Part shown: piece after piece, positions 4,036 to 45,012 of the stretch
Position numbering within the stretch: position 1 is the stretch's first letter
Layout: every line of letters begins with the position of its first letter
DNA from: Frankiaceae bacterium
Lineage (GTDB): Bacteria; Actinomycetota; Actinomycetes; JAFAQI01
Assembly (NCBI GenBank): GCA_019239875.1
Contig: JAFAZI010000002.1
Coordinates: forward strand, 1-45,475
DNA length: 45,475 nt
Direction: 5' to 3'
Made by a program: the position numbers and the translations under genes
The notes under the pieces: model-generated
The model's database searches: none
Told to the model about the DNA's origin: nothing
Seen by the model: only the letters and a program-made list of their open reading frames with translations

Positions 4036-5471
4036 GAGCCGGAGTCGCGGGAGTGCTCGACGCGGCGCTTCGCGATCGGCCGGACGCGGAAGCGGTCCTC
4101 TCCCGATCGGGATCCCTCACGTATGCCCAGCTCGACGCGCAGGCTGACCGAGCGGCGGCCGGCCTGTGGTCCCTCGGTGTACGACCCGGTGACCGGGTGG
4201 CGGCCTCACTGCCCAATGACCAGGACGTCGTCGTGGCGTTCCACGGTGCGATGCGGATCGGCGCGATCTGGGTCGGTATCGGCGAGGCGCTGGCGCCACC
4301 CGAGCGCGCGCACCTCCTGGACGACAGCAAGCCCGCGGTCTACCTGACGGCGGAAGACAATCCGCTGCTGGATGCGATGGCAGACGCACCCGAAGCACCT
4401 GCCGTGGAGATCGACGTCCATGCGCCGGCCGGCATCGCCTACACGAGCGGCACCACCGGCGTACCGAAAGGCATCGTCCACTCCCAGCACAACCTGCTGC
4501 TGCCAGGCGAGGTGCTCGTCGCGAGTCGCGGCTGGGGTCCGGACCTTCGCAAAGGCGACTGCCTGCCGCTGACCATTCTCAACCTGATGGTCCTGACGAC
4601 GTTGCTCACCGCGCAGGCGCAAGGATGCTGCGTCGTCATGGACCGGCGCGACGCGGACGGCATCGCCGAGTGGATCGAACGCGGCCGGGTGACGGTGTGG
4701 AACGGCGTGCCCGCCCAGCTCCACGACCTCGTCACGACCAAGCGGGTCGATCCGGCTCGGCTCCGGTCGTTGCGCGAGGTGTGGAGCGGCGGCGGGGACT
4801 GCCCCGAGTCGCTCCGCACCGCGTTCGAGGACTGCTACGGCTTGTCGATCCGTACGACGTACGGGCTCACCGAAGCACCGACCGTCGTGTCGATCGACCC
4901 GGTGGGTACCGAACGGCGTGAGGGAGCCAGCGGCCAGGTCCTGCCACACCTCGAGGTGAGCACCGGTGACGGCGAGGGTGAGATCACGGTGTCGGCACGC
5001 GCCGATGGTGACTGGGCAGGGCGGTGGCGGCCGTATCTCGGCACGTGGGACGGGCACGGCGTTGCACCGAATCGAGACGCGGTGCTCGCCACCGGAGACG
5101 TCGGCACCGTCGAGTCAGGGTGGCTATCGGTACGGGACCGGCTGAAGCTGCTGATCGTGCGGGGTGGCGCGAACGTCTATCCCGCCGAGGTCGAGCGGGT
5201 TCTGCTCGGCGTCGACGGCATCGCGGGAGCCGCGGTGTTCGGCGTGCCGGATGCCCGCCTCGGTGAGCGGGTCGGCGCCGTCGTGGAGCCGTCCGGCGGT
5301 GTGCGGGTCGACGTCGCAACACTCCGCGAGGCGTGCGCGACGGCACTCGCCGCCTACAAGGTGCCGGAGCGCTTCGCGATCGTCGACGCGCTGCCCCGCA
5401 ATGCGATGGGCAAGGTTGTGCGGACCGGGTTGGTGGACCTCCTGGCCGCTTCGGGAGGATCTGACACGTGA
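4032..5471 (+). CDS. AMP-dependent acyl-CoA synthetase/ligase
   Basis: IAYTSGTTGVPKGIVHS, TYGLTEAP, RDRLKLLIVRGGANVYPAEVE, PRNAMGKVVR. Confidence 0.9.
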   Translation: MRAGVAGVLDAALRDRPDAEAVLSRSGSLTYAQLDAQADRAAAGLWSLGVRPGDRVAASLPNDQDVVVAFHGAMRIGAIWVGIGEALAPPERAHLLDDSKPAVYLTAEDNPLLDAMADAPEAPAVEIDVHAPAGIAYTSGTTGVPKGIVHSQHNLLLPGEVLVASRGWGPDLRKGDCLPLTILNLMVLTTLLTAQAQGCCVVMDRRDADGIAEWIERGRVTVWNGVPAQLHDLVTTKRVDPARLRSLREVWSGGGDCPESLRTAFEDCYGLSIRTTYGLTEAPTVVSIDPVGTERREGASGQVLPHLEVSTGDGEGEITVSARADGDWAGRWRPYLGTWDGHGVAPNRDAVLATGDVGTVESGWLSVRDRLKLLIVRGGANVYPAEVERVLLGVDGIAGAAVFGVPDARLGERVGAVVEPSGGVRVDVATLREACATALAAYKVPERFAIVDALPRNAMGKVVRTGLVDLLAASGGSDT

Positions 5472-12036: not shown

Positions 12037-12107
12037 CGCAACTCAGGTTCCACAGGGGTAGGCCCGAGGTATAGACGACGGCAACCTCTCGTGGAAGGCT
12101 CAGCGGC

Positions 12108-13121
12108 GTGCGAATCCGACGGATGCGTGACGGCATCTCGTCGTGGCTGAAAGGCCACCACCGTTACGCCACGCCTGGCGGGATCGTCGCGGCGGTGCTG
12201 CTGGGCGCCGCGCTCGCGGGCGGGGCACTCGCCGGTGTGGGCTGGGCAGCGGGCTACGGGCGGGTCTGGCAGCTGGTCGATGACGCGAACTGGGTGTGGC
12301 TGCCGGTCGCGGTCGGCTGCGTGTTCGTGAGCCACGTCGGTTACACACTTGCCTATCGGGAAGTGGCACAGATCCAGAACGGGCCGCGGGTCTCCGTCGG
12401 GCTCGCGGGAATGTCCGTCCTGGCCGGCTTCGGGATGCTGATCCCGCGGGCCGGGTTCCGCATGGACCAGGCGATCCTCGAGGAGCACGGCTTCTCGGGC
12501 GATGCGGCGCGCGGGGTCGTGCGCCGGCTCGGGATGCTGGAGTACGCGATCCTCGGGCCGACCACCCTCGTCGCGGCGGTCGTGTTGCTCATCGAGCACT
12601 TCCACTCGGAGGGCGGCGTCCTGCTCTCATGGGTGGTCGGCGTGCCGGCCGGCAGCGCGATCGCACTGTTGCTGATCGCCAACCGCGAGCGGCTCCCACA
12701 GAAGGGCAAGGTCTGGACCGAGCTTCGCTGCGTGCTCGATGCCGTCGCCTCACTGCGGGCGCTGGCCCAATGCGCGACTGGCCTGCTCGCGATCGTCGGC
12801 ATGGCGATGTACTGGGCCGCTGACATCACGGCGCTCGGGGCGTGCCTTGCCGTCGTACAGCACGAGGTGCCACCGGCGGTGTTGATCGTCGGCTACGCCA
12901 CCGGGTACGCGATGACCCGGCGGAGCCTGCCGTTCGCGGGCGCCGGGGCGGCTGAGGCGTTGATGCCGTTCGCGATGCACTGGATGTCGGTGCCGCTGGC
13001 CGCCGCAGTGTTCGCGGTGTTCGCCTACCGGGTGTGCAACCTGTGGCTGCCACTTGCGCCCGCGGCCCTGGCGCTGCGGCGGCTCCGCAACCTCCCGGTG
13101 CTGCTGCCTTCCACGGCCTGA
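12108..13121 (+). CDS. lysylphosphatidylglycerol synthase TM-like / YbhN-type flippase-like membrane protein
   Basis: Multiple hydrophobic segments; LAGMSVLAGFGMLIPRAGFRMDQAIL; RRSLPFAGAGAAEALMPFAM. Confidence 0.65.
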   Translation: MRIRRMRDGISSWLKGHHRYATPGGIVAAVLLGAALAGGALAGVGWAAGYGRVWQLVDDANWVWLPVAVGCVFVSHVGYTLAYREVAQIQNGPRVSVGLAGMSVLAGFGMLIPRAGFRMDQAILEEHGFSGDAARGVVRRLGMLEYAILGPTTLVAAVVLLIEHFHSEGGVLLSWVVGVPAGSAIALLLIANRERLPQKGKVWTELRCVLDAVASLRALAQCATGLLAIVGMAMYWAADITALGACLAVVQHEVPPAVLIVGYATGYAMTRRSLPFAGAGAAEALMPFAMHWMSVPLAAAVFAVFAYRVCNLWLPLAPAALALRRLRNLPVLLPSTA

Positions 13122-13150
13122 TCGCCCACCGGCGTCGCGCGCGTTCTGTC

Positions 13151-13243
13151 GCACTGATGGGCCATGCACCGCCCAAGTCCCGCACTGATGGGCCATGCAC
13201 CACCCAAGTCCCGCACTGATGGGCCATGCGCGGCTCAGGTCGC
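13151..13243. repeat. 31-bp-period tandem repeat, about 3 copies, unit GCACTGATGGGCCATGCACCRCCCAAGTCCC
   Basis: Copies start at 13151, 13182 and 13213; third copy is diverged in its 3' half and runs into the stop of the minus-strand gene. Confidence 0.9.
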
Positions 13244-14068
13244 GGGCTGCTCCAGCAGACGGACCATCGACTCCTGGGCGAAGCTCGCGACCAGGCGGCC
13301 GTCGGCGGTCCAGACGTCGCCGCGCCCGAAGACCCGGCCGCCGGACAGCACAGGGGCGACCTGGTCGACGAGCACCCAGTCGGTCAGCCTGAACGGCTGG
13401 TGGAACCACAGCGAGTGTGTGGTCACCGCAGAGTGGAACGCCCGGCCGGTGTCCGCCTGCGACAGGCCCGCGATCGGCAGCAGCGCCGTACCGATCACCG
13501 TCAAGTCGGTCGAGTGGGCGAGCAGCGCCTGGTGGGTCCACGTCGAGTCGTCAGTGATCGCCTCGGCCGGCACTCGCATCCAGAACTGGAAGGCGGGCGG
13601 GCCGGTGACGGCGCCATCGTTGAGGTCGACGCCGCCGACGACGCGGATTTCCCACGGGATCATGTCGATGACCACGGGTACGGCGTCCTCGGGCGACCCC
13701 GTTGACGGGGGAGTCGGCGGGTTCTCGAGCCCGGCCTCCGGAAGGTGCAACGAGGCAGCCGCGGCACTGATCAATTTGCCGGCCTGGGTCAGCTCGACCC
13801 CCATGGTCGCGAAGGTGCGTCCCACGTGGCGCTCGTCGACCGCGTAGGTGATCGGCATCGAGACATCTCCCTCGCGGGGGAAGTACTGCACGAGGGACTT
13901 CAGCGACTTGTCTCCGGCGTGAGCGCGGAGCGCCTGGATCGTCTGGGCCAGCAGCTGGCCGCCGAAGACCCGGCGGTAGTCGAGGGCGAGGTTCTCACCT
14001 TCGAGCCGACCCCCTTCTGCGGGCCGCAGCGCGAGACACGAGATCAGGTTCGCGAGGTCGAAAGCCAC
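13235..14068 (-). CDS. acyl-CoA thioesterase (TesB-like double hotdog)
   Basis: YRRVFGGQLLAQTIQALRAHA; LSQADTGRAFHSAVTTHSLWFHQPFRLTDWVL. Confidence 0.85.
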   Translation of the reverse strand: MAFDLANLISCLALRPAEGGRLEGENLALDYRRVFGGQLLAQTIQALRAHAGDKSLKSLVQYFPREGDVSMPITYAVDERHVGRTFATMGVELTQAGKLISAAAASLHLPEAGLENPPTPPSTGSPEDAVPVVIDMIPWEIRVVGGVDLNDGAVTGPPAFQFWMRVPAEAITDDSTWTHQALLAHSTDLTVIGTALLPIAGLSQADTGRAFHSAVTTHSLWFHQPFRLTDWVLVDQVAPVLSGGRVFGRGDVWTADGRLVASFAQESMVRLLEQPAT

Positions 14069-26953: not shown

Positions 26954-26980
26954 GCGCTCCGGAACGGCACCTATAGTCTG
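26954..26980 (-). repeat. cassette-boundary site, leftmost, reverse orientation
   Basis: Reverse complement reads CAGACTATAGGTGCCGTTCCGGAGCGC. Confidence 0.85.
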
Positions 26981-27006
26981 ACGGGTCGTTCGCCGAGGAT
27001 CACGGC

Positions 27007-27198
27007 TCAGGAGAAGTACACCGTCCGCACAATCCACACCAACCACACGAGGGCTGCGGACCACACGAATATGCGCCCACACGACCAAAGTACTTTGTAT
27101 GACCTCGATCCGGAACGACCTGTCGTCCAGTCATAGCCACGCGGCTTCGGCCCGTACAGGTATACCCACTCGGCGATGAATTCCAGAAACCACCCCAC
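27007..27198 (-). CDS. small membrane protein (left-array cassette)
   Basis: 63 aa, SCGRIFVWSAALVWLVWIVRTVYFS TM segment; stop just before the site at 26954-26980. Confidence 0.5.
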   Translation of the reverse strand: MGWFLEFIAEWVYLYGPKPRGYDWTTGRSGSRSYKVLWSCGRIFVWSAALVWLVWIVRTVYFS

Positions 27199-27260
27199 GA
27201 AGCAATTTCGGCAATCTCAGCTCGGATCTTGACGCGCGCTGCGAACCCTGAAACCTATGC

Positions 27261-27280
27261 GCCGCGAGCGGCACCTATCC
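27261..27280 (-). repeat. cassette-boundary site, reverse orientation
   Basis: Reverse complement GGATAGGTGCCGCTCGCGGC, matching GTAGGTGCCGCTCGCGGC at 37926. Confidence 0.8.
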
Positions 27281-27577
27281 GGCGGGTTCGCGTCGGGGCT
27301 TCACGTGCCGCCACGCACGATGGCGGGTCTTTTGGGAGAACTGCTTGTCCTGAGAGACGACCCGAAGTGCCTCGCCGATCGTGTCGCTCCAGGTGTTCGC
27401 GTCGATCCAGTCCAAGGCGTGCCCGACCCAGTAGTCCGACCATGGGCGGCAGACGACCTCTTCAACTAGGCGGACCGCCGTCGCGTCATCGAGACCGCTC
27501 TCGGACCTGGGCCGCTCTAGCAACGGCAGCAGCGCCCGAATGTCGTCCACCGATGCACGGTAACGCTGGGGCGACAC
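27275..27577 (-). CDS. hypothetical protein (left-array cassette)
   Basis: 100 aa ORF, stop overlaps the site at 27261-27280. Confidence 0.55.
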   Translation of the reverse strand: MSPQRYRASVDDIRALLPLLERPRSESGLDDATAVRLVEEVVCRPWSDYWVGHALDWIDANTWSDTIGEALRVVSQDKQFSQKTRHRAWRHVKPRREPAG

Positions 27578-27580
27578 TTG

Positions 27581-27602
27581 CGAGCGGCACCTATAGTCCG
27601 TT
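27581..27602 (-). repeat. cassette-boundary site, reverse orientation
   Basis: Reverse complement CGGACTATAGGTGCCGCTCG. Confidence 0.85.
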
Positions 27603-28063: not shown

Positions 28064-28109
28064 CGAACGCACGGTAGCGGGCTGGTGGGTCCGGGCGACT
28101 GCGCCAGAA

Positions 28110-28124
28110 CGCCGGTTAGGTCCG
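28110..28124 (+). repeat. integrase-flanking inverted repeat, left copy (attI-like candidate)
   Basis: CGCCGGTTAGGTCCG, exact reverse complement of 29092-29106. Confidence 0.85.
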
Positions 28125-28187: not shown

Positions 28188-29090
28188 ATGACAACGACTG
28201 ACCTGTCCCTGACCACCAGCGACGCGAGCCGATGGGCCGTCGCGGGCTTCTTGGCCCGCTATCGGGAGCCGACCCGATCTGCGTACACGTTGGACCTGCG
28301 ATCGTTCCTGGCGTGGTGCCTGAGCAATAACCGGGACATGCTGCAGGTCAGCCGCGCGGAGCTCGAACTGTTCCTCCGTGACATGGAAGGCCGCGGCTAC
28401 GCGGTCGCGACGATCGCCCGACGATTTGGCACTGTCGCAACGTTCTATAAGTACGCGGTGATTGACGGCCTGATCTCCCACAACCCTGCGGATGCCGTCA
28501 CGCGACCTCGTGTCTCCTGGGAGGGTCAGCGGCGCACCGTCTTGCATCCGCTCGAGTTCGCCGCCATGCTGACGGCCGCGCGAACGGCCGGACCGGTCGA
28601 GCATGCGCTCGTCGCCCTCCTGGGCATGCTCGGACTGCGCGTGTCCGAAGCCTGCAACGCCGACGTCACCGACCTGCGTTACGAGTCCGGCTACGAGCTG
28701 CTGCACATCATCGGCAAAGGCGCGAAGCCCGCCGACATCCCGCTGCCGATCCCGGTGCTGCGTGCGGTCCGCCAGGTCATCGGCGAGCGCACCACAGGCC
28801 CGCTGTTGCGCACTCGCACGGGACGACGCCTCGACCGGCCCGCGGCGGCGCGGATCGTCGCCAGGCTCGCCAAGCACGCCGGGATCAACCACGCGATCAG
28901 TCCTCACGGGCTACGTCGCACCTTTTGCACCAGTGGCCTGATCGCCGGCGTCGCGATCCGCGACATGCAGCACGCGATGCGGCACAGCGACCCCCGCACC
29001 ACGCTCCGCTACGACATGGCCAAGACCAACCTCGACCGCCACGCCTCCCACGCGGTCGCCGCCTACCTCGCCGGCATGAGCACCGGTTGA
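28188..29090 (+). CDS. XerC/XerD-like tyrosine recombinase/integrase
   Basis: Catalytic pattern R (GMLGLRVSEA), K (IIGKGAK), HxxR (SPHGLRRTF), H (MRHSDPRTT), Y (LRYDMAK); N-terminal core-binding domain ARYREPTRSAYTLDLRSFLAWC. Confidence 0.95.
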   Translation: MTTTDLSLTTSDASRWAVAGFLARYREPTRSAYTLDLRSFLAWCLSNNRDMLQVSRAELELFLRDMEGRGYAVATIARRFGTVATFYKYAVIDGLISHNPADAVTRPRVSWEGQRRTVLHPLEFAAMLTAARTAGPVEHALVALLGMLGLRVSEACNADVTDLRYESGYELLHIIGKGAKPADIPLPIPVLRAVRQVIGERTTGPLLRTRTGRRLDRPAAARIVARLAKHAGINHAISPHGLRRTFCTSGLIAGVAIRDMQHAMRHSDPRTTLRYDMAKTNLDRHASHAVAAYLAGMSTG

Positions 29091-29091
29091 C

Positions 29092-29106
29092 CGGACCTAA
29101 CCGGCG
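29092..29106 (-). repeat. integrase-flanking inverted repeat, right copy (attI-like candidate)
   Basis: CGGACCTAACCGGCG, exact reverse complement of 28110-28124; begins 2 nt after integrase stop. Confidence 0.85.
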
Positions 29107-29142
29107 CTACACGACGCCTCGATTGCGGCCGATGATGGCTGC

Positions 29143-29421: not shown

Positions 29422-29922
29422 GTGTCCTCCGACATTGTCTGCGCGTCTTGTGGCCGCAGCGTCGATGCACACAATCAGCACTACCGATTCACCTTGCCTG
29501 ACCCGGTGCTGGACACCCCCGAGCGTGAGCACGCCGAAGGCACATGGATGAGCGACGCCGATGCAAACCGTTCCGTCCTGTTGCAGGTCCCGAACGTTGG
29601 GCCCTTTGTCCGTGCACTTCTTCCGGTGAAGCTGACCGGGGGCTTCGCGCTCACGTTTGGCGTGTGGCTGGCTGTACACCCGGAAGACCTTCAGCGAGCT
29701 GCGCGAGTGTGGCACCAGCCTGAGTACTCAGATCTCGTGTTGGACGGCTGGCTTGCGAATGCACTGCCCGTGTGGGGTCTTCTCGCGTGTCCCGTGCGGG
29801 CTGTCGTTCGCGTCATGGAACACACGCCCTATTGCTCAGAAAGTGCAAATGCCAAGATGAACTCCGTCCTGACAGACGAATTGCCTCACGACCTCATCTT
29901 GAGCGCGGTCACCACACGTTAA
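29422..29922 (+). CDS. DUF2199-like protein (cassette)
   Basis: CASCGRSVDAHNQHYRFTLPDPV; VKLTGGFALTFGVWLAVHPEDLQRAARVW; stop TAA lies in the following site. Confidence 0.65.
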   Translation: MSSDIVCASCGRSVDAHNQHYRFTLPDPVLDTPEREHAEGTWMSDADANRSVLLQVPNVGPFVRALLPVKLTGGFALTFGVWLAVHPEDLQRAARVWHQPEYSDLVLDGWLANALPVWGLLACPVRAVVRVMEHTPYCSESANAKMNSVLTDELPHDLILSAVTTR

Positions 29923-29970
29923 TGCCGTTCCTGAACGGTCCCAGCGTTAGGGCGCGGCTGCCTAACGCTT
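29919..29970 (+). repeat. cassette-boundary site with 9-bp inverted repeat
   Basis: TTAATGCCGTTCCTGAACGGTCCC, then AGCGTTAGG-N9-CCTAACGCT. Confidence 0.8.
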
Positions 29971-30016
29971 CAGCTCTGCGTTTGGCAGACGCCAGGGCGG
30001 TAGGGACCATTGGCGG

Positions 30017-30454
30017 ATGCATCGAATGTGGGCAGCTGGGGCGGCACTCTGTCTGGCGGTCGGAGGGTGCTCCCCGGCGTTTGACAAGACCTCAACGGTG
30101 CCGACACTCTCGTGCGCCTCGCATGCAACCGAAGCGACGTCGCAAGGGCCGACTACCCGACCAGGCAGGGACTTCGAGCCTCTTACTAAACAGCAGCACT
30201 CGGTTCCGTGGAAGTTAGAAACGATCCGCGAGGGCGGTTGCGTCCTCGTGGTCAGTTACAGCGACGAATGTGACGCCGCATCACGTGTACAGGTCCGCGA
30301 GGGGCCGACTGATGTACTGATTCGCGCGGTAATTCTTCGTAGCACCGGTGATTTGTGCGCATCGTCCCGTCTACGGTTCGTCCTATTGCCCGTACCGCTC
30401 GGTGATCGTCACCTCGTCCACGCCCGCGTCGCGCCGTTATTCAACAACCAATAG
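30017..30454 (+). CDS. lipoprotein (cassette)
   Basis: MHRMWAAGAALCLAVGGCSPAF signal peptide with lipobox. Confidence 0.65.
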   Translation: MHRMWAAGAALCLAVGGCSPAFDKTSTVPTLSCASHATEATSQGPTTRPGRDFEPLTKQQHSVPWKLETIREGGCVLVVSYSDECDAASRVQVREGPTDVLIRAVILRSTGDLCASSRLRFVLLPVPLGDRHLVHARVAPLFNNQ

Positions 30455-30474
30455 CGTCCGAAGCTGCGCGGATG

Positions 30475-30556
30475 AGAAGTGATGCCGTTCTGCGACGAGC
30501 ACGTGAGCCCGCGCGCCAGCGCGCAGACTATTGGTGCCGGTAGCGGACCACTGGCT
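30475..30556 (+). repeat. cassette-boundary site, long form
   Basis: AAGTGATGCCGTTCTGCGACGAGCACGTGAGCCCGCGCGCCAGCGCGCAGACTATTGGTGCCGGTAGCGGACC. Confidence 0.9.
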
Positions 30557-33139: not shown

Positions 33140-33176
33140 GCGAATGCCGTTCCCGAGCGCCCTATTCGGCGCTATG
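33140..33176 (+). repeat. cassette-boundary site
   Basis: GCGAATGCCGTTCCCGAGCGCCCTATTCGGCGCTATGC. Confidence 0.8.
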
Positions 33177-33201
33177 CATCGCTTGTCGGACCGTGGATTC
33201 G

Positions 33202-33737: not shown

Positions 33738-33772
33738 GATATGCCGTTCTCGAACAGTCCCGGCGCTACAGT
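33738..33772 (+). repeat. cassette-boundary site
   Basis: GATATGCCGTTCTCGAACAGTCCCGGCGCTACA. Confidence 0.8.
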
Positions 33773-33848
33773 GCGATCGGGGTCGGAGAGGTGTTGGGTG
33801 CATTTCACATACCGCCGACAGGACCGGCTGACCTGCAGTTCTTGCCCT

Positions 33849-34850: not shown

Positions 34851-34915
34851 TCCCTGCCGTTCTGCGACGGGCACCTAGCCCGCGCGCCAGCGCGCAAACT
34901 ATAGATGCCGTTTTC
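34851..34915 (+). repeat. cassette-boundary site, long form
   Basis: CTGCCGTTCTGCGACGGGCACCTAGCCCGCGCGCCAGCGCGCAAACTATAGATGCCG. Confidence 0.9.
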
Positions 34916-36077: not shown

Positions 36078-36150
36078 CGCGAAGTGGCGATCCTTCGGCG
36101 GAACAAGGTTCCGCCGAGGGCGGCAGACTATAGGTGAGCCGATAGCGGCG
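36078..36150 (+). repeat. cassette-boundary site, long form with strong hairpin
   Basis: CGAAGTGGCGATCCTTCGGCGGAACAAGGTTCCGCCGAGGGCGGCAGACTATAGGTGAGCCGATAGCGG. Confidence 0.9.
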
Positions 36151-36175
36151 GCCCGCCCGGCGTTAGCCTTCCCGT

Positions 36176-36643
36176 GTGGCTGCGACGGACGACGTATTCC
36201 TGACCCACCAGCAGCCGGTGTGGCGTTCCCGCGCCGACTTCATCGTCATGGCGCCCCTTGCCGAGCATCACACCTACGAGCAGATTTGGGCTCGACAGGA
36301 AGCCGACGATCTGTTCGAGATCTGCTGCATCCCCTTCTTCGCGCACAACCTGTCGCTAGGTGATCTTGTACGAACCGAGATGCAGGGTGAACGCTCCTAC
36401 TTGATCAGCGACGTCGTGCGGCCCTCGGGCCGATCGACCTTCCGCGTCTGGCTCGGGAAGAGCCCAGACGATCGACTGGACGTGGAGGCGGAGTTCATAG
36501 CCATGGGCGCACTGACTGAGTGGTCGTCCGAGCACCTGCTTGCGCTGGACGTGCCCGACGAACCGCAGGCCCAGGTCCTCGCGACCAGACTGGCAGCGGG
36601 CGAGCAGAGCGGTCGCTGGTTGTACGAGACCGGCCGACTGTAA
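36176..36643 (+). CDS. DUF4265-like protein (cassette)
   Basis: VWRSRADFIVMAPLAEHHTYEQIWARQEADDLFEICCIPFFAHNLSLGDLV; VVRPSGRSTFRVWLG; TAA stop inside following site. Confidence 0.75.
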   Translation: MAATDDVFLTHQQPVWRSRADFIVMAPLAEHHTYEQIWARQEADDLFEICCIPFFAHNLSLGDLVRTEMQGERSYLISDVVRPSGRSTFRVWLGKSPDDRLDVEAEFIAMGALTEWSSEHLLALDVPDEPQAQVLATRLAAGEQSGRWLYETGRL

Positions 36644-36662
36644 GTGCCGCTCCAATCAAGCG
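36636..36662 (+). repeat. cassette-boundary site
   Basis: GACTGTAAGTGCCGCTCCAATCAAGC. Confidence 0.8.
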
Positions 36663-37366: not shown

Positions 37367-37398
37367 AGCGTCCGACGAATAGTGCCGTTCTTCTACGC
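37367..37398 (+). repeat. cassette-boundary site
   Basis: GCGTCCGACGAATAGTGCCGTTCTTC. Confidence 0.75.
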
Positions 37399-37422
37399 AG
37401 CCGACCCCGTTATCGTGCGAGC

Positions 37423-37929
37423 GTGACCGGCGAACCATGTCCGCGATGCGGCATGAAACCTGTCGAGTTCAGCGATAGCCGCGGGCACGCATTGACGATT
37501 TTCGACGTCATATTCGGGCTCGGGGCTCTGCTCCTTCTGCTCGCCCTCGGGACAAATGTTCTGGTCGCAGGAGTAGTTGCCGTGCTCGTCGGCATCGCAT
37601 TTCGGGCGGTCACTAACCACTCCTACTACCGCTGGACACGCACGGCGGACGGACGGGCCTTCACGTGGAGCAAGGGGCGCGTCATCCGAACTATCCCGAA
37701 CGACGGTGTCGTGGAGGTAAGCGAGGGTCGCTTGACCGCGATGGGTCCGTGCGTGTTCGTACGTGTCGATGCGCAGTCAGCCCATCTGCTGACGAGCCGT
37801 GCGCAGCGCCGTACCCAACAGTTCGTCATCTTGAAACGGCGCCTCAATGATCTGCCTAGTCTCCGGAAGCACCTCGGCCACCTCGGCCAGCAGAAATACG
37901 AATCAAGTCAGCCACTTAGCGGACTGTAG
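37423..37929 (+). CDS. membrane protein with N-terminal Zn-ribbon and PH-like C-terminus (cassette)
   Basis: MTGEPCPRCGMKP; FDVIFGLGALLLLLALGTNVLVAGVVAVLVG; TAG stop inside following site. Confidence 0.6.
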   Translation: MTGEPCPRCGMKPVEFSDSRGHALTIFDVIFGLGALLLLLALGTNVLVAGVVAVLVGIAFRAVTNHSYYRWTRTADGRAFTWSKGRVIRTIPNDGVVEVSEGRLTAMGPCVFVRVDAQSAHLLTSRAQRRTQQFVILKRRLNDLPSLRKHLGHLGQQKYESSQPLSGL

Positions 37930-37960
37930 GTGCCGCTCGCGGCGCCGGGCCAAGCCTAGG
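37921..37960 (+). repeat. cassette-boundary site
   Basis: GGACTGTAGGTGCCGCTCGCGGCGCCGGGCCAAGCC. Confidence 0.85.
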
Positions 37961-39440: not shown

Positions 39441-39484
39441 CACGAAGTGCCGATCCTGAGCGGGTCATCCGGCGCTTCGTGCGC
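39441..39484 (+). repeat. cassette-boundary site
   Basis: CACGAAGTGCCGATCCTGAGCGGGTCATCCGGCGCTTCGTGCG; CACGAAG...CTTCGTG outer inverted repeat. Confidence 0.85.
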
Positions 39485-39506: not shown

Positions 39507-40019
39507 GTGATTGAGCCCGCGGACGGTGCCGGAAGCGTGACCGACTCTGTGATGCGCGCGGCGGCGCAGGTCGGTACGCGCACCGAGGACGCCGTGCTCG
39601 GGGGTCGTCCATGTCCAACATTTCGACGTTCGGATTTTCGCGTCGCCTGGGTCGCCACCCGGATGCACACGTTCATCTACGTCTTGGATCTGACCGCCGG
39701 GAGCCACGTACCGCCGCCCGACCTAGCTCAGGAAGCACGCGTGTGGGCTCGTGACCACAAGGGTGGTCTACCCGGTGGGATGCAGACGGGCTCGACCGCA
39801 ATGCCCGTCTTTATCGTGCCCGAGGTTAACAGCGCCCGCGCCTGGGCCGAGTCGCGCCAGCCTGCGATGTTCGCGGTCGGGCTGTTTCCGATCGCCGTAC
39901 GAGCCGACGGTCGGCAGGTGGCGTACCGCCGCAAGAGTCAGTTCGTGGGCTTCGTCTACGAGCGATTTCGGCGATCTCTCGCATCGGCGCTTGTCGGCGG
40001 ACTGGCTCCCGACCTTTAA
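39507..40019 (+). CDS. hypothetical protein (cassette)
   Basis: GTG at 39507 likely; TAA stop inside following site. Confidence 0.55.
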   Translation: MIEPADGAGSVTDSVMRAAAQVGTRTEDAVLGGRPCPTFRRSDFRVAWVATRMHTFIYVLDLTAGSHVPPPDLAQEARVWARDHKGGLPGGMQTGSTAMPVFIVPEVNSARAWAESRQPAMFAVGLFPIAVRADGRQVAYRRKSQFVGFVYERFRRSLASALVGGLAPDL

Positions 40020-40036
40020 GTGCCGTTAGTCAAGAC
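40012..40036 (+). repeat. cassette-boundary site
   Basis: ACCTTTAAGTGCCGTTAGTCAAGAC. Confidence 0.75.
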
Positions 40037-40307: not shown

Positions 40308-40338
40308 CCGAAGTGCCGCTCATGGCGCGCTCACGAGT
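40308..40338 (+). repeat. cassette-boundary site
   Basis: CCGAAGTGCCGCTCATGGCGCGCTCACGAG. Confidence 0.7.
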
Positions 40339-41313: not shown

Positions 41314-41395
41314 CGATAGGTGCCGTTCTGCAACGGGCACCTAGCCCGCGCGCCAGCGCGCAGACTATAGGTGAGCCGGTAGCGTCCGATGTAGC
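41314..41395 (+). repeat. cassette-boundary site, long form
   Basis: GATAGGTGCCGTTCTGCAACGGGCACCTAGCCCGCGCGCCAGCGCGCAGACTATAGGTGAGCCGGTAGCGTCCGATG. Confidence 0.92.
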
Positions 41396-41937: not shown

Positions 41938-41982
41938 CGGGAAGTGTCGCTCCTGAACAGTCCCGGCGTTCGCGAACGGTCT
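41938..41982 (+). repeat. cassette-boundary site
   Basis: CGGGAAGTGTCGCTCCTGAACAGTCCCGGCGTTCGCGAACGG. Confidence 0.75.
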
Positions 41983-43685: not shown

Positions 43686-43745
43686 CTTTGTTCCGCCGAA
43701 GCGCAGACTGTAGGTGCCGATCTCCGACTGCGGTGACCGCTAGGC
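43686..43745 (+). repeat. cassette-boundary site
   Basis: TTTGTTCCGCCGAAGCGCAGACTGTAGGTGCCGATCTCCG. Confidence 0.85.
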
Positions 43746-43795: not shown

Positions 43796-44179
43796 GTGGG
43801 TTCGGAGACTTTGCCGATCGTCATCACGGTTGTCGCGGGTGGTCTTTCGGTCGTGCTTCTTGTCGCGCATTTCACCGGTCATACGAAATGGGCGCGCGGT
43901 TTGGACGAGCGCATGTGGGCATCGAAGCTCGGCTGGCTCGTTCCGGGCGGACTTGCGTATCGGGTCGCTCGCCGGTGGGGTCTGCCGGCAGGTCCGCTTC
44001 CGTTCTTTCTTGGCGGTATGACGGGCATGTGGGCCTACGAGATCGGGAGCAGGCGACATCGCGTCATTCACGGGCTCGATGAGTTTGAACCCGTCGCCGG
44101 TGGCGCCGCGCCGCTTACTTCGCGGGTACCTGAACCGGAGGAAACGATCGTTGCCGTGGTGCCGAGGCATCGCGCATAG
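43796..44179 (+). CDS. membrane protein (cassette)
   Basis: LPIVITVVAGGLSVVLLVAHFTGH; TAG stop inside following site. Confidence 0.55.
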   Translation: MGSETLPIVITVVAGGLSVVLLVAHFTGHTKWARGLDERMWASKLGWLVPGGLAYRVARRWGLPAGPLPFFLGGMTGMWAYEIGSRRHRVIHGLDEFEPVAGGAAPLTSRVPEPEETIVAVVPRHRA

Positions 44180-44210
44180 CTGCCGTTATTGCGCTCCGGT
44201 GCTGGCTAGG
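44176..44210 (+). repeat. cassette-boundary site
   Basis: ATAGCTGCCGTTATTGCGCTCCGGTGCTGGCTAGG. Confidence 0.65.
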
Positions 44211-44228
44211 TGCGTAGATACTGACCTG

Positions 44229-44987
44229 ATGGCGGCAGCGTCGCGAGGCGGCGGGTTCATCAGGGCCGTCCGTATTGATGTGCCAGCGACCGCGGCCAGC
44301 CAATGGCCGTTCACGATTCCGTCGATCGCCTCCTTTGGCCGTCGCAGCTTCGACCCGGCCGTGACGTATCTGGTCGGCGAGAACGGCAGCGGCAAGTCGA
44401 CTCTTGTTGAGGCGTTGGCAGTCGCGGTTGGCCTCAACGCCGAGGGCGGTACGCGCAACATGGGATTCTCGACCGCTGACTCTCACACCGCTTTGACTAA
44501 GCATCTAGTGGTGGAGCGCCGAGGACGGCCGCGCACGGACTTTTTCCTGCGGGCTGAAAGCTTCTTCAACGTGGCGTCACATATCGACCGGCTCGACGAG
44601 GATCCGCTTGGTGGACCAAAGATTCGCGAGGCCTACGGCGGGCAGTCGTTGCACACGCGCTCGCATGGCGAGTCATTCATCGCAACGTTGACTCACCGGC
44701 TCGGTCCAGGCGGGCTGTACTTCCTCGACGAACCGGAATCAGCCCTGTCGTTCCACGGGTGCCTCACGCTTCTGCGCGTGATCAACGACCTCACCCGGGA
44801 GGGATCACAATTCGTAATCGCTACCCACAGCCCGATCGTTCTGGCCAGTCCTGGTGCGCTTATCTACTCGCTCGACGAGGACGGAATCAAGACCACGCAC
44901 TACGACGAAGCCCCACCCGTGATCAACAACCGTGAGTTCTTACGCTCCCCTGAGCGATTCCTCCGGCATCTTTTCGCGGACGATTGA
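44229..44987 (+). CDS. AAA/ABC-type single-gene ATPase (COG3910-like) (cassette)
   Basis: Walker A VGENGSGKSTLVEAL; SHGESFIATL; Walker B GGLYFLDEPESALS; FVIATHSPIVLASPGA. Confidence 0.88.
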   Translation: MAAASRGGGFIRAVRIDVPATAASQWPFTIPSIASFGRRSFDPAVTYLVGENGSGKSTLVEALAVAVGLNAEGGTRNMGFSTADSHTALTKHLVVERRGRPRTDFFLRAESFFNVASHIDRLDEDPLGGPKIREAYGGQSLHTRSHGESFIATLTHRLGPGGLYFLDEPESALSFHGCLTLLRVINDLTREGSQFVIATHSPIVLASPGALIYSLDEDGIKTTHYDEAPPVINNREFLRSPERFLRHLFADD

Positions 44988-45012
44988 TAGGTGACGCTCG
45001 CGATCGGTGGAA
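44985..45012 (+). repeat. cassette-boundary site (diverged)
   Basis: TGATAGGTGACGCTCGCGATCGG. Confidence 0.55.

What the first reader, a model, noticed from the sequence alone, without database searches (positions are those of the whole stretch)
28188..29090. Array recombinase is XerC/D-like and lacks the IntI-specific insertion
The 300-aa protein has a complete R-K-HxxR-H-Y set. Between the K box and HGLRR it has a short linker (TTGPLLRTRTGRRLDRPAAARIVARLAKHAGINHAI) with no sign of the additional alpha-helical motif typical of IntI. If it drives the array, cassette recombination here is carried out by a different tyrosine recombinase subfamily.
Basis: partly seen in the sequence, partly recalled or inferred. 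Interest (0 to 1): 0.72.

Follow-up and report, generated by a model that had tools for sequence, protein, structure and literature searches.

The report
Non-IntI integron-like gene cassette platform
In an actinobacterium a small tyrosine recombinase, which is neither an integron integrase nor the cell's own XerC/XerD, sits between two outward-facing rows of small gene cassettes, which looks like a gene-capture system that arose separately from integrons in a group reported to lack complete integrons.

Summary
The 300-aa tyrosine recombinase at 28188-29090 is real. It has a complete R-K-H-R-H-Y set and no IntI-type insertion: its K-box to HxxR segment is 70 aa, against 113-114 in IntI and 76-87 in XerC/D. 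AU tests reject placing it with IntI (p 1.5e-4) or with XerC/D (p 1.8e-5). It belongs to a third family of simple actinobacterial recombinases that also includes Gordonia and Arthrobacter phage integrases, so "XerC/D-like" fits only loosely. Around it lies an array of small, mostly unknown genes separated by recurring RTGCCG-type sites. Sites left of the gene read leftward, those right of it rightward. A 16/17 inverted repeat flanks the gene. Relatives in other families show comparable arrays with lineage-specific, mostly TGCCG-containing sites: two-sided in G287, one-sided in G288, one-directional in G056, and probably a further array in a Frankiales MAG. Two pairs of close relatives diverge at the presumed core next to the recombinase. 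Best reading: an integron-analogous, often two-sided cassette platform run by a non-IntI recombinase. Recombination itself, the exact crossover and any single-strand folding are not shown. I found no description of it in the held literature.

The parts
28188..29090 (+). Simple tyrosine recombinase (300 aa; SAM-like core-binding domain plus catalytic domain; R151 K177 H240 R243 H266 Y275)
29092..29108 (+). attI-like site, right: CGGACCTAACCGGCGCT, just after the stop codon; its right part equals the right box of array sites
   Evidence: 16/17 inverted repeat
28108..28124 (-). attI-like site, left: CGGACCTAACCGGCGTT reading away from the gene, about 63 nt upstream of its start
26962..26973 (-). 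Left-array site box TAGGTGCCGTTC, outermost site; left edge of the array
27266..27277 (-). Left-array site box TAGGTGCCGCTC
27582..27593 (-). Left-array site box TAGGTGCCGCTC
26980..27285 (-). Cassette B, about 90% identical second copy on contig C51
29919..29955 (+). Array site, left box ATGCCGTTC, right box CCAGCGTTAGGG
29944..30479 (+). Cassette A, about 90% identical second copy on contig C51; the shared block ends just before the site boxes
29422..29922 (+). Cassette ORF, DUF2199 protein, stop adjoining a site
30483..30539 (+). ORF-less site unit ending in CAGACTATTGGTGCCG (recurs at 34855 and 41321)
33141..33180 (+). Array site, left and right boxes
33738..33774 (+). Array site, left and right boxes
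34855..34910 (+). ORF-less site unit
36081..36171 (+). Long array site with internal stem, right box CCGGCGTTAGCC
36176..36643 (+). Cassette ORF, DUF4265 protein; stop codon overlaps the next site
36641..36652 (+). Array site box TAAGTGCCGCTC
37379..37418 (+). Array site, left and right boxes
37927..37938 (+). Array site box TAGGTGCCGCTC; TAG is the stop of the preceding ORF
39444..39482 (+). Array site with hairpin-forming arms
40017..40028 (+). Array site box TAAGTGCCGTTA
40310..40321 (+). Array site box GAAGTGCCGCTC
41317..41376 (+). Array site plus ORF-less unit
41941..41977 (+). Array site, left and right boxes
43711..43722 (+). Array site box TAGGTGCCGATC
44177..44188 (+). Array site box TAGCTGCCGTTA overlapping the stop of ORF 43796-44179
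44988..44999 (+). Last visible array site; the array runs off the contig end at 45475

Best explanation
The gene encodes the site-specific recombinase of an integron-analogous cassette platform that uses a non-IntI, simple tyrosine recombinase. Shown by sequence: the recombinase sits between two copies of a 17-bp core (CGGACCTAACCGGCGYT) facing outward; small cassettes with a recurring site (left box RTGCCGNTC, right box near CGGCGYTA) extend from both sides; and site orientation flips at the gene. Inferred: the recombinase recombines the core next to its own gene with the site carried by a circular cassette, so new cassettes enter at either side of the gene, and it also excises and reshuffles cassettes. 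I think exchange at or near the right box (CCGGCGYTA) most likely, because that is where the shared sequence stops both in the two flanking copies and next to the gene in one pair of relatives.
For: Sites cluster 20 against 0.39 expected, all outward. Of 23 right-array sites, 15 lie at the stop of an ORF of at least 60 aa, against a random mean of 4.6 and maximum of 11 in 1000 draws. The 16/17 inverted repeat flanks the gene. Two cassettes recur at about 90% identity on contig C51, and the shared block ends at the site boxes. Close relatives L049/L051x are about 90% identical up to the core CCGTCACTAC downstream and GAGCCG upstream, then about 45%. L084 and L043 match exactly for 42 nt upstream, then change. 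G287 (int 46% identical): 13 of 17 genomic CGGATCTGCCG copies lie within 6 kb around the int, 11 outward. G288 (54%): seven GATGTGCCG-type sites, all outward on one side. L042 (63%): six outward copies on the right and one on the left of an 8-mer, none inward. Phylogeny excludes IntI and XerC/D.
Against: No recombination event has been observed, and no two strains with the same array were available. In the duplicated cassettes the site body differs at both ends, so the exact crossover and which site travels with the gene are unclear. Site foldability is only weakly above shuffles (Stouffer -3.2 top, -2.3 bottom), so an attC-like single-strand reaction is not established. G056 has sites in one direction on both sides of its int, so two-sidedness is not universal. 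Many family members were seen without an obvious array, and some are phage integrases. The pattern used for the site count was derived from the array itself.
Confidence: 0.72

Rival explanations
1. The gene is a phage- or IME-derived integrase whose element decayed here; the array is older and moved by something else or is immobile.
For: The wider family contains integrases of Gordonia and Arthrobacter temperate phages at 43-48% identity. One relative (G014) sits between 58-bp tRNA-like repeats, an element-like arrangement.
Against: No phage or mobile-element genes were found around the gene. The flanking core matches the array sites. Site orientation flips exactly at the gene here and in G287. 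Arrays accompany relatives in several other families of the class.
Confidence: 0.14
2. The recurring motifs are transcription terminators or dispersed palindromic repeats, not recombination sites, and the gene content turns over by ordinary homologous recombination.
For: Some sites form hairpins (W39444, W42675), and sites lie at gene ends.
Against: Most sites fold no better than shuffles. Sites keep one direction on each side of the recombinase. In G056 and G039 site units form 34-nt tandem arrays near the int. Relatives diverge at the core beside the int.
Confidence: 0.09
3. It is a true integron with a very divergent IntI.
For: Architecture (recombinase, adjacent core site, cassette array) matches integrons; a weak match to NCBIfam TIGR02249 (61 bits).
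Against: TIGR02249 cut-off is 265 bits; the IntI insertion is absent; AU test p 1.5e-4 against grouping with IntI.
Confidence: 0.02
4. The host XerC/XerD pair recombines the array sites and the array gene is irrelevant.
For: The genome encodes separate XerC/D-type proteins, and Xer-mobilised modules are known in Acinetobacter (PMC7399989, abstract).
Against: Sites differ between lineages and accompany the P0001-family gene; the family gene sits at the point where site orientation flips.
Confidence: 0.03

Closest known systems
Integrons (IntI / attI / attC)
   Same: A site-specific tyrosine recombinase beside a core site, followed by an array of small, mostly unknown, single-ORF cassettes separated by recurring sites; an int-less array (C200) resembles a CALIN
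   Different: The recombinase is not IntI and lacks its insertion; cassettes lie on both sides facing outward; the sites do not have the attC consensus (own knowledge of attC); strong single-strand folding is not shown; the held survey reports Actinobacteria lack complete integrons (PMC9024848)
Simple tyrosine integrases of actinophages (Brujita type; Gordonia and Arthrobacter phages)
   Same: Same size and two-domain layout without arm-binding domain; best Foldseek match is Brujita integrase 5vfz; 43-48% identity to Gordonia and Arthrobacter phage integrases
   Different: Those serve prophage integration; here the gene sits in a cassette array without phage genes
XerC/XerD
   Same: Similar fold and domain layout; NCBIfam XerD and XerC models match at 116 and 111 bits
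   Different: Far below those models' cut-offs (330-335 bits); AU test rejects grouping; the host has its own XerC/D-type genes
Xer-mobilised resistance modules of Acinetobacter
   Same: A non-IntI tyrosine recombinase system proposed to move single genes
   Different: Those use host XerC/D and Xer-type sites and do not form long arrays around a dedicated recombinase (own knowledge; abstract)

Membership tests
IntI integron integrase | Scores above the curated TIGR02249 cut-off | tested here: not met
   61 bits against 265
IntI integron integrase | Additional insertion in the catalytic domain between the K box and HxxR | tested here: not met
   70 aa against 113-114 aa in seven IntI; no extra helix in the model
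IntI integron integrase | Falls in the IntI clade | tested here: not met
   IntI clade 100/100 without it; AU p 1.5e-4
Integron (system) | Integrase with an adjacent attI site | tested here: inconclusive
   Non-IntI recombinase; attI-like core on both sides; function untested
Integron (system) | Array of cassettes separated by attC sites that fold as imperfect hairpins | tested here: inconclusive
   Array of directional sites present; folding only weakly above shuffles
Integron (system) | Cassette promoter Pc and integrase-dependent cassette movement | not testable with these tools
   needs experiment
XerC/XerD | Scores above TIGR02225 / TIGR02224 cut-offs | tested here: not met
   116 of 330 bits and 111 of 335 bits
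XerC/XerD | Falls in the XerC/XerD clade | tested here: not met
   AU p 1.8e-5; own XerC/D-type genes on other contigs, C141 and C157
Simple (no arm-binding domain) tyrosine recombinases with actinophage integrases | Core-binding plus catalytic domain only, about 300 aa | tested here: met
   best fold match Brujita 5vfz
Simple (no arm-binding domain) tyrosine recombinases with actinophage integrases | Groups with actinophage members in a tree | tested here: met
   Phage integrases nested in the family; the exact branch order near Gordonia phages is weak (89/77)

The most novel reading that the evidence does not exclude
A separately evolved counterpart of the integron in Actinomycetes: a family of phage-related simple tyrosine recombinases was adopted to run cassette arrays, often two-sided, with lineage-specific TGCCG-core sites. 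If true, cassette capture evolved more than once from different recombinase stocks and does not need the IntI insertion.
Probability: 0.55. Interest if true: 0.9.

Novelty: new variant of a known kind. Interest (0 to 1): 0.78.

Why it matters
Integrons are treated as a system defined by IntI, and a published survey found no complete integron in Actinobacteria (PMC9024848). A non-IntI cassette platform present in several actinobacterial families would fill that gap, would be missed by IntI/attC-based software, and would be a reservoir of small unknown genes. It makes the question of whether the IntI insertion and single-strand attC folding are necessary for cassette capture directly testable. 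The shared family with temperate phage integrases suggests where such platforms come from.

Tried and rejected
Rfam found nothing in the window. A cross-lineage site consensus TGCCG..CGGCGYTA does not hold beyond the nearest relatives: each lineage has its own sites. A 14-mer enrichment scan was swamped by GC-rich coding words in most relatives, and the mirror control was uninformative (it reads the same words on the other strand). A LexA/SOS box upstream of the gene was sought with up to 3 mismatches: none in the window, scattered weak ones in five relatives. Viral contigs had no close relative with the single sequence and four at 44-50% with a profile. The first AlphaFold run with four sequences was poor (pLDDT 60); the second with thirteen was usable (85). 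Sites of the window type are not clustered in the other genomes of the same family. Arrays were sought on other contigs of the closest relatives with CCGNCACTAYCGAGC: only about background counts, so arrays in G017, G023 and G092 remain unproven because their contigs end near the gene. A classical attC covariance model was not available to test.

Full report
OBSERVATION. The ORF at 28188-29090 (+) encodes 300 aa with Pfam Phage_integrase (1e-21) and an N-terminal SAM-like domain. The catalytic set is R151, K177, H240, R243, H266, Y275. Between the K box and HxxR the window protein has 70 residues, eighteen XerC/D have 76-87 and seven IntI have 113-114. An AlphaFold model (mean pLDDT 85, thirteen-row alignment) has only short strands there.

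WHICH RECOMBINASE. NCBIfam scores are 116 bits for XerD (cut-off 330), 111 for XerC (335) and 61 for IntI (265). In a 67-row maximum-likelihood tree IntI is one clade (100/100), XerC/D of this class another (99/95), and these two together are split from the window's family (100/99). AU tests reject the window protein with IntI (p 1.5e-4) and with XerC/D (p 1.8e-5); the tool warns of long branches between IntI and the family, so the relative order of the three groups is less certain than their separateness. The genome has its own XerC/D-type genes at 36% and 33% identity. The wider family includes integrases of 64 Gordonia and 47 Arthrobacter phage records, the best at 48%, and a few actinobacterial plasmid genes. 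The best fold match is the Brujita phage integrase 5vfz. Close relatives of the window protein (63-76%) come from other families of the class; 43 of 395 class genomes have a member at E <= 1e-28.

THE ARRAY. From 26962 to the contig end at 45475 (the window is a whole contig) GC falls from about 69% to about 62% and small ORFs alternate with a recurring site. Its left box is RTGCCGNTC and many copies have a right box near CGGCGYTA. KARRTGCCGHTM occurs 68 times in the genome; 20 lie in about 33 kb on contigs C25, C51 and C200, against 0.39 expected, and all 20 point in the array direction. The pattern came from the array, so the count is descriptive; the orientation is not fixed by that choice. 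Left of the recombinase the three sites matching it are on the minus strand, right of it all are on the plus strand. Fifteen of 23 right-array sites sit at the stop of an ORF of at least 60 aa (random mean 4.6, maximum 11 of 1000 draws), sometimes with the stop codon inside the site. Of twenty cassette ORFs scanned, most have no Pfam match; the rest are DUF2199, DUF4265, DUF4304, DUF2019 and SHOCT. A further ORF, 44079-44987, is an AAA ATPase. C51 runs to its contig end within an array, and C200 has an array without a recombinase next to recA.

THE SITES BESIDE THE GENE. A 17-bp sequence, CGGACCTAACCGGCG(C/T)T, lies just after the stop (29092-29108) and, inverted, about 63 nt before the start (28108-28124), matching at 16 of 17. 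Its right end is the array right box. One longer unrelated inverted match appeared in another locus (L091, 17 of 18, far from the gene ends), so its length alone is not proof; its position at both gene ends and its match to the array box carry the weight. In close relatives L049 and L051x about 90% identity continues downstream to CCGTCACTAC and upstream to GAGCCG and then drops to about 45%. L084 and L043 are identical for 42 nt upstream, then differ, then share GACCGAGCTGGCACTAT. This is what two insertion points, one on each side, would leave.

MOBILITY SIGNS. Two cassettes are present twice in the genome at about 90% identity (29944-30479 and 26980-27285 against C51). The shared blocks run from the right-box region to just before the next left box; the site bodies differ. 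An ORF-less unit of about 55 nt occurs three times in the window and twice on C51.

OTHER LINEAGES. In G287 (46% identity) 13 of 17 genomic copies of CGGATCTGCCG lie within 6 kb around the gene, 11 facing outward, on both sides. In G288 (54%) seven GATGTGCCG-type sites all face outward on one side. In a Frankiales MAG (L042, 63%) the 8-mer CGGCCTTC occurs outward six times on the right and once on the left, and not inward. G056 has dispersed C(A/T)TGCCGC sites in one direction plus a 34-nt tandem array; G039 has about twenty 34-nt tandem units containing TGCCGCG. Most of these share a TGCCG core (L042 is the exception) and otherwise differ.

MECHANISM. Shown: dedicated recombinase, directional sites, outward geometry, cassette duplicates, divergence at the core beside the gene. 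Inferred: recombination of cassette sites with the core on either side of the gene. Open: crossover base, whether DNA is folded single-stranded (folding is only weakly above shuffles, Stouffer -3.2 and -2.3), cassette expression, control.

LITERATURE. [quoted passage not shown] A classification of tyrosine recombinases places IntI in a subgroup with a catalytic-domain insertion and notes the simple Brujita integrase (PMC8138268). Six searches of the held open-access library found no non-IntI cassette array of this kind; subscription papers and preprints were not searchable.

VERDICT. The protein is not an integron integrase and not XerC/D. It most likely runs an integron-analogous, two-sided cassette platform. 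By the membership test it is not filed as an integron; it works like one as far as anatomy can show.

Noticed in passing
L048 (G000 contig C200) about 12107-13417: recA next to the int-less array appears to carry an intein (typical CLAAGTRV... start and ...VVHNC end in the reading frame).
   Followed up: no
L048 5000-10850 (G000:C200): A site array without a recombinase, adjoining recA, comparable to a CALIN.
   Followed up: partly
L054 15811-16390 (G056) and L055 6549-7190 (G039): 34-nt tandem arrays made of TGCCG-containing site units near the family recombinase, perhaps stacked ORF-less cassettes (coordinates on the strand in which the int reads forward).
   Followed up: partly
L160, L163, L166 (phages RadFad, Shlim410, Zaheer): These phages each carry a P0001-family recombinase plus a second tyrosine integrase; in Shlim410 a tRNA 3' end lies downstream of the first.
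   Followed up: partly
L057 (G014) 4671-4728 and 13852-13909: 58-bp tRNA-like direct repeats flank about 9 kb holding a 39%-identical family member, as in an integrated element.
   Followed up: no
window 44079-44987: AAA ATPase ORF ending at an array site, weakly similar to several defence ATPases in PADLOC; a large cassette or the array's edge.
   Followed up: partly
window 13150-13249: Three tandem copies of a 31-bp unit in the high-GC part, outside the array.
   Followed up: no
L091 19561-19848 (on the strand in which the int reads forward): An inverted pair of sites inside the right array of G287, and an inward site beyond it, break the outward rule.
   Followed up: no
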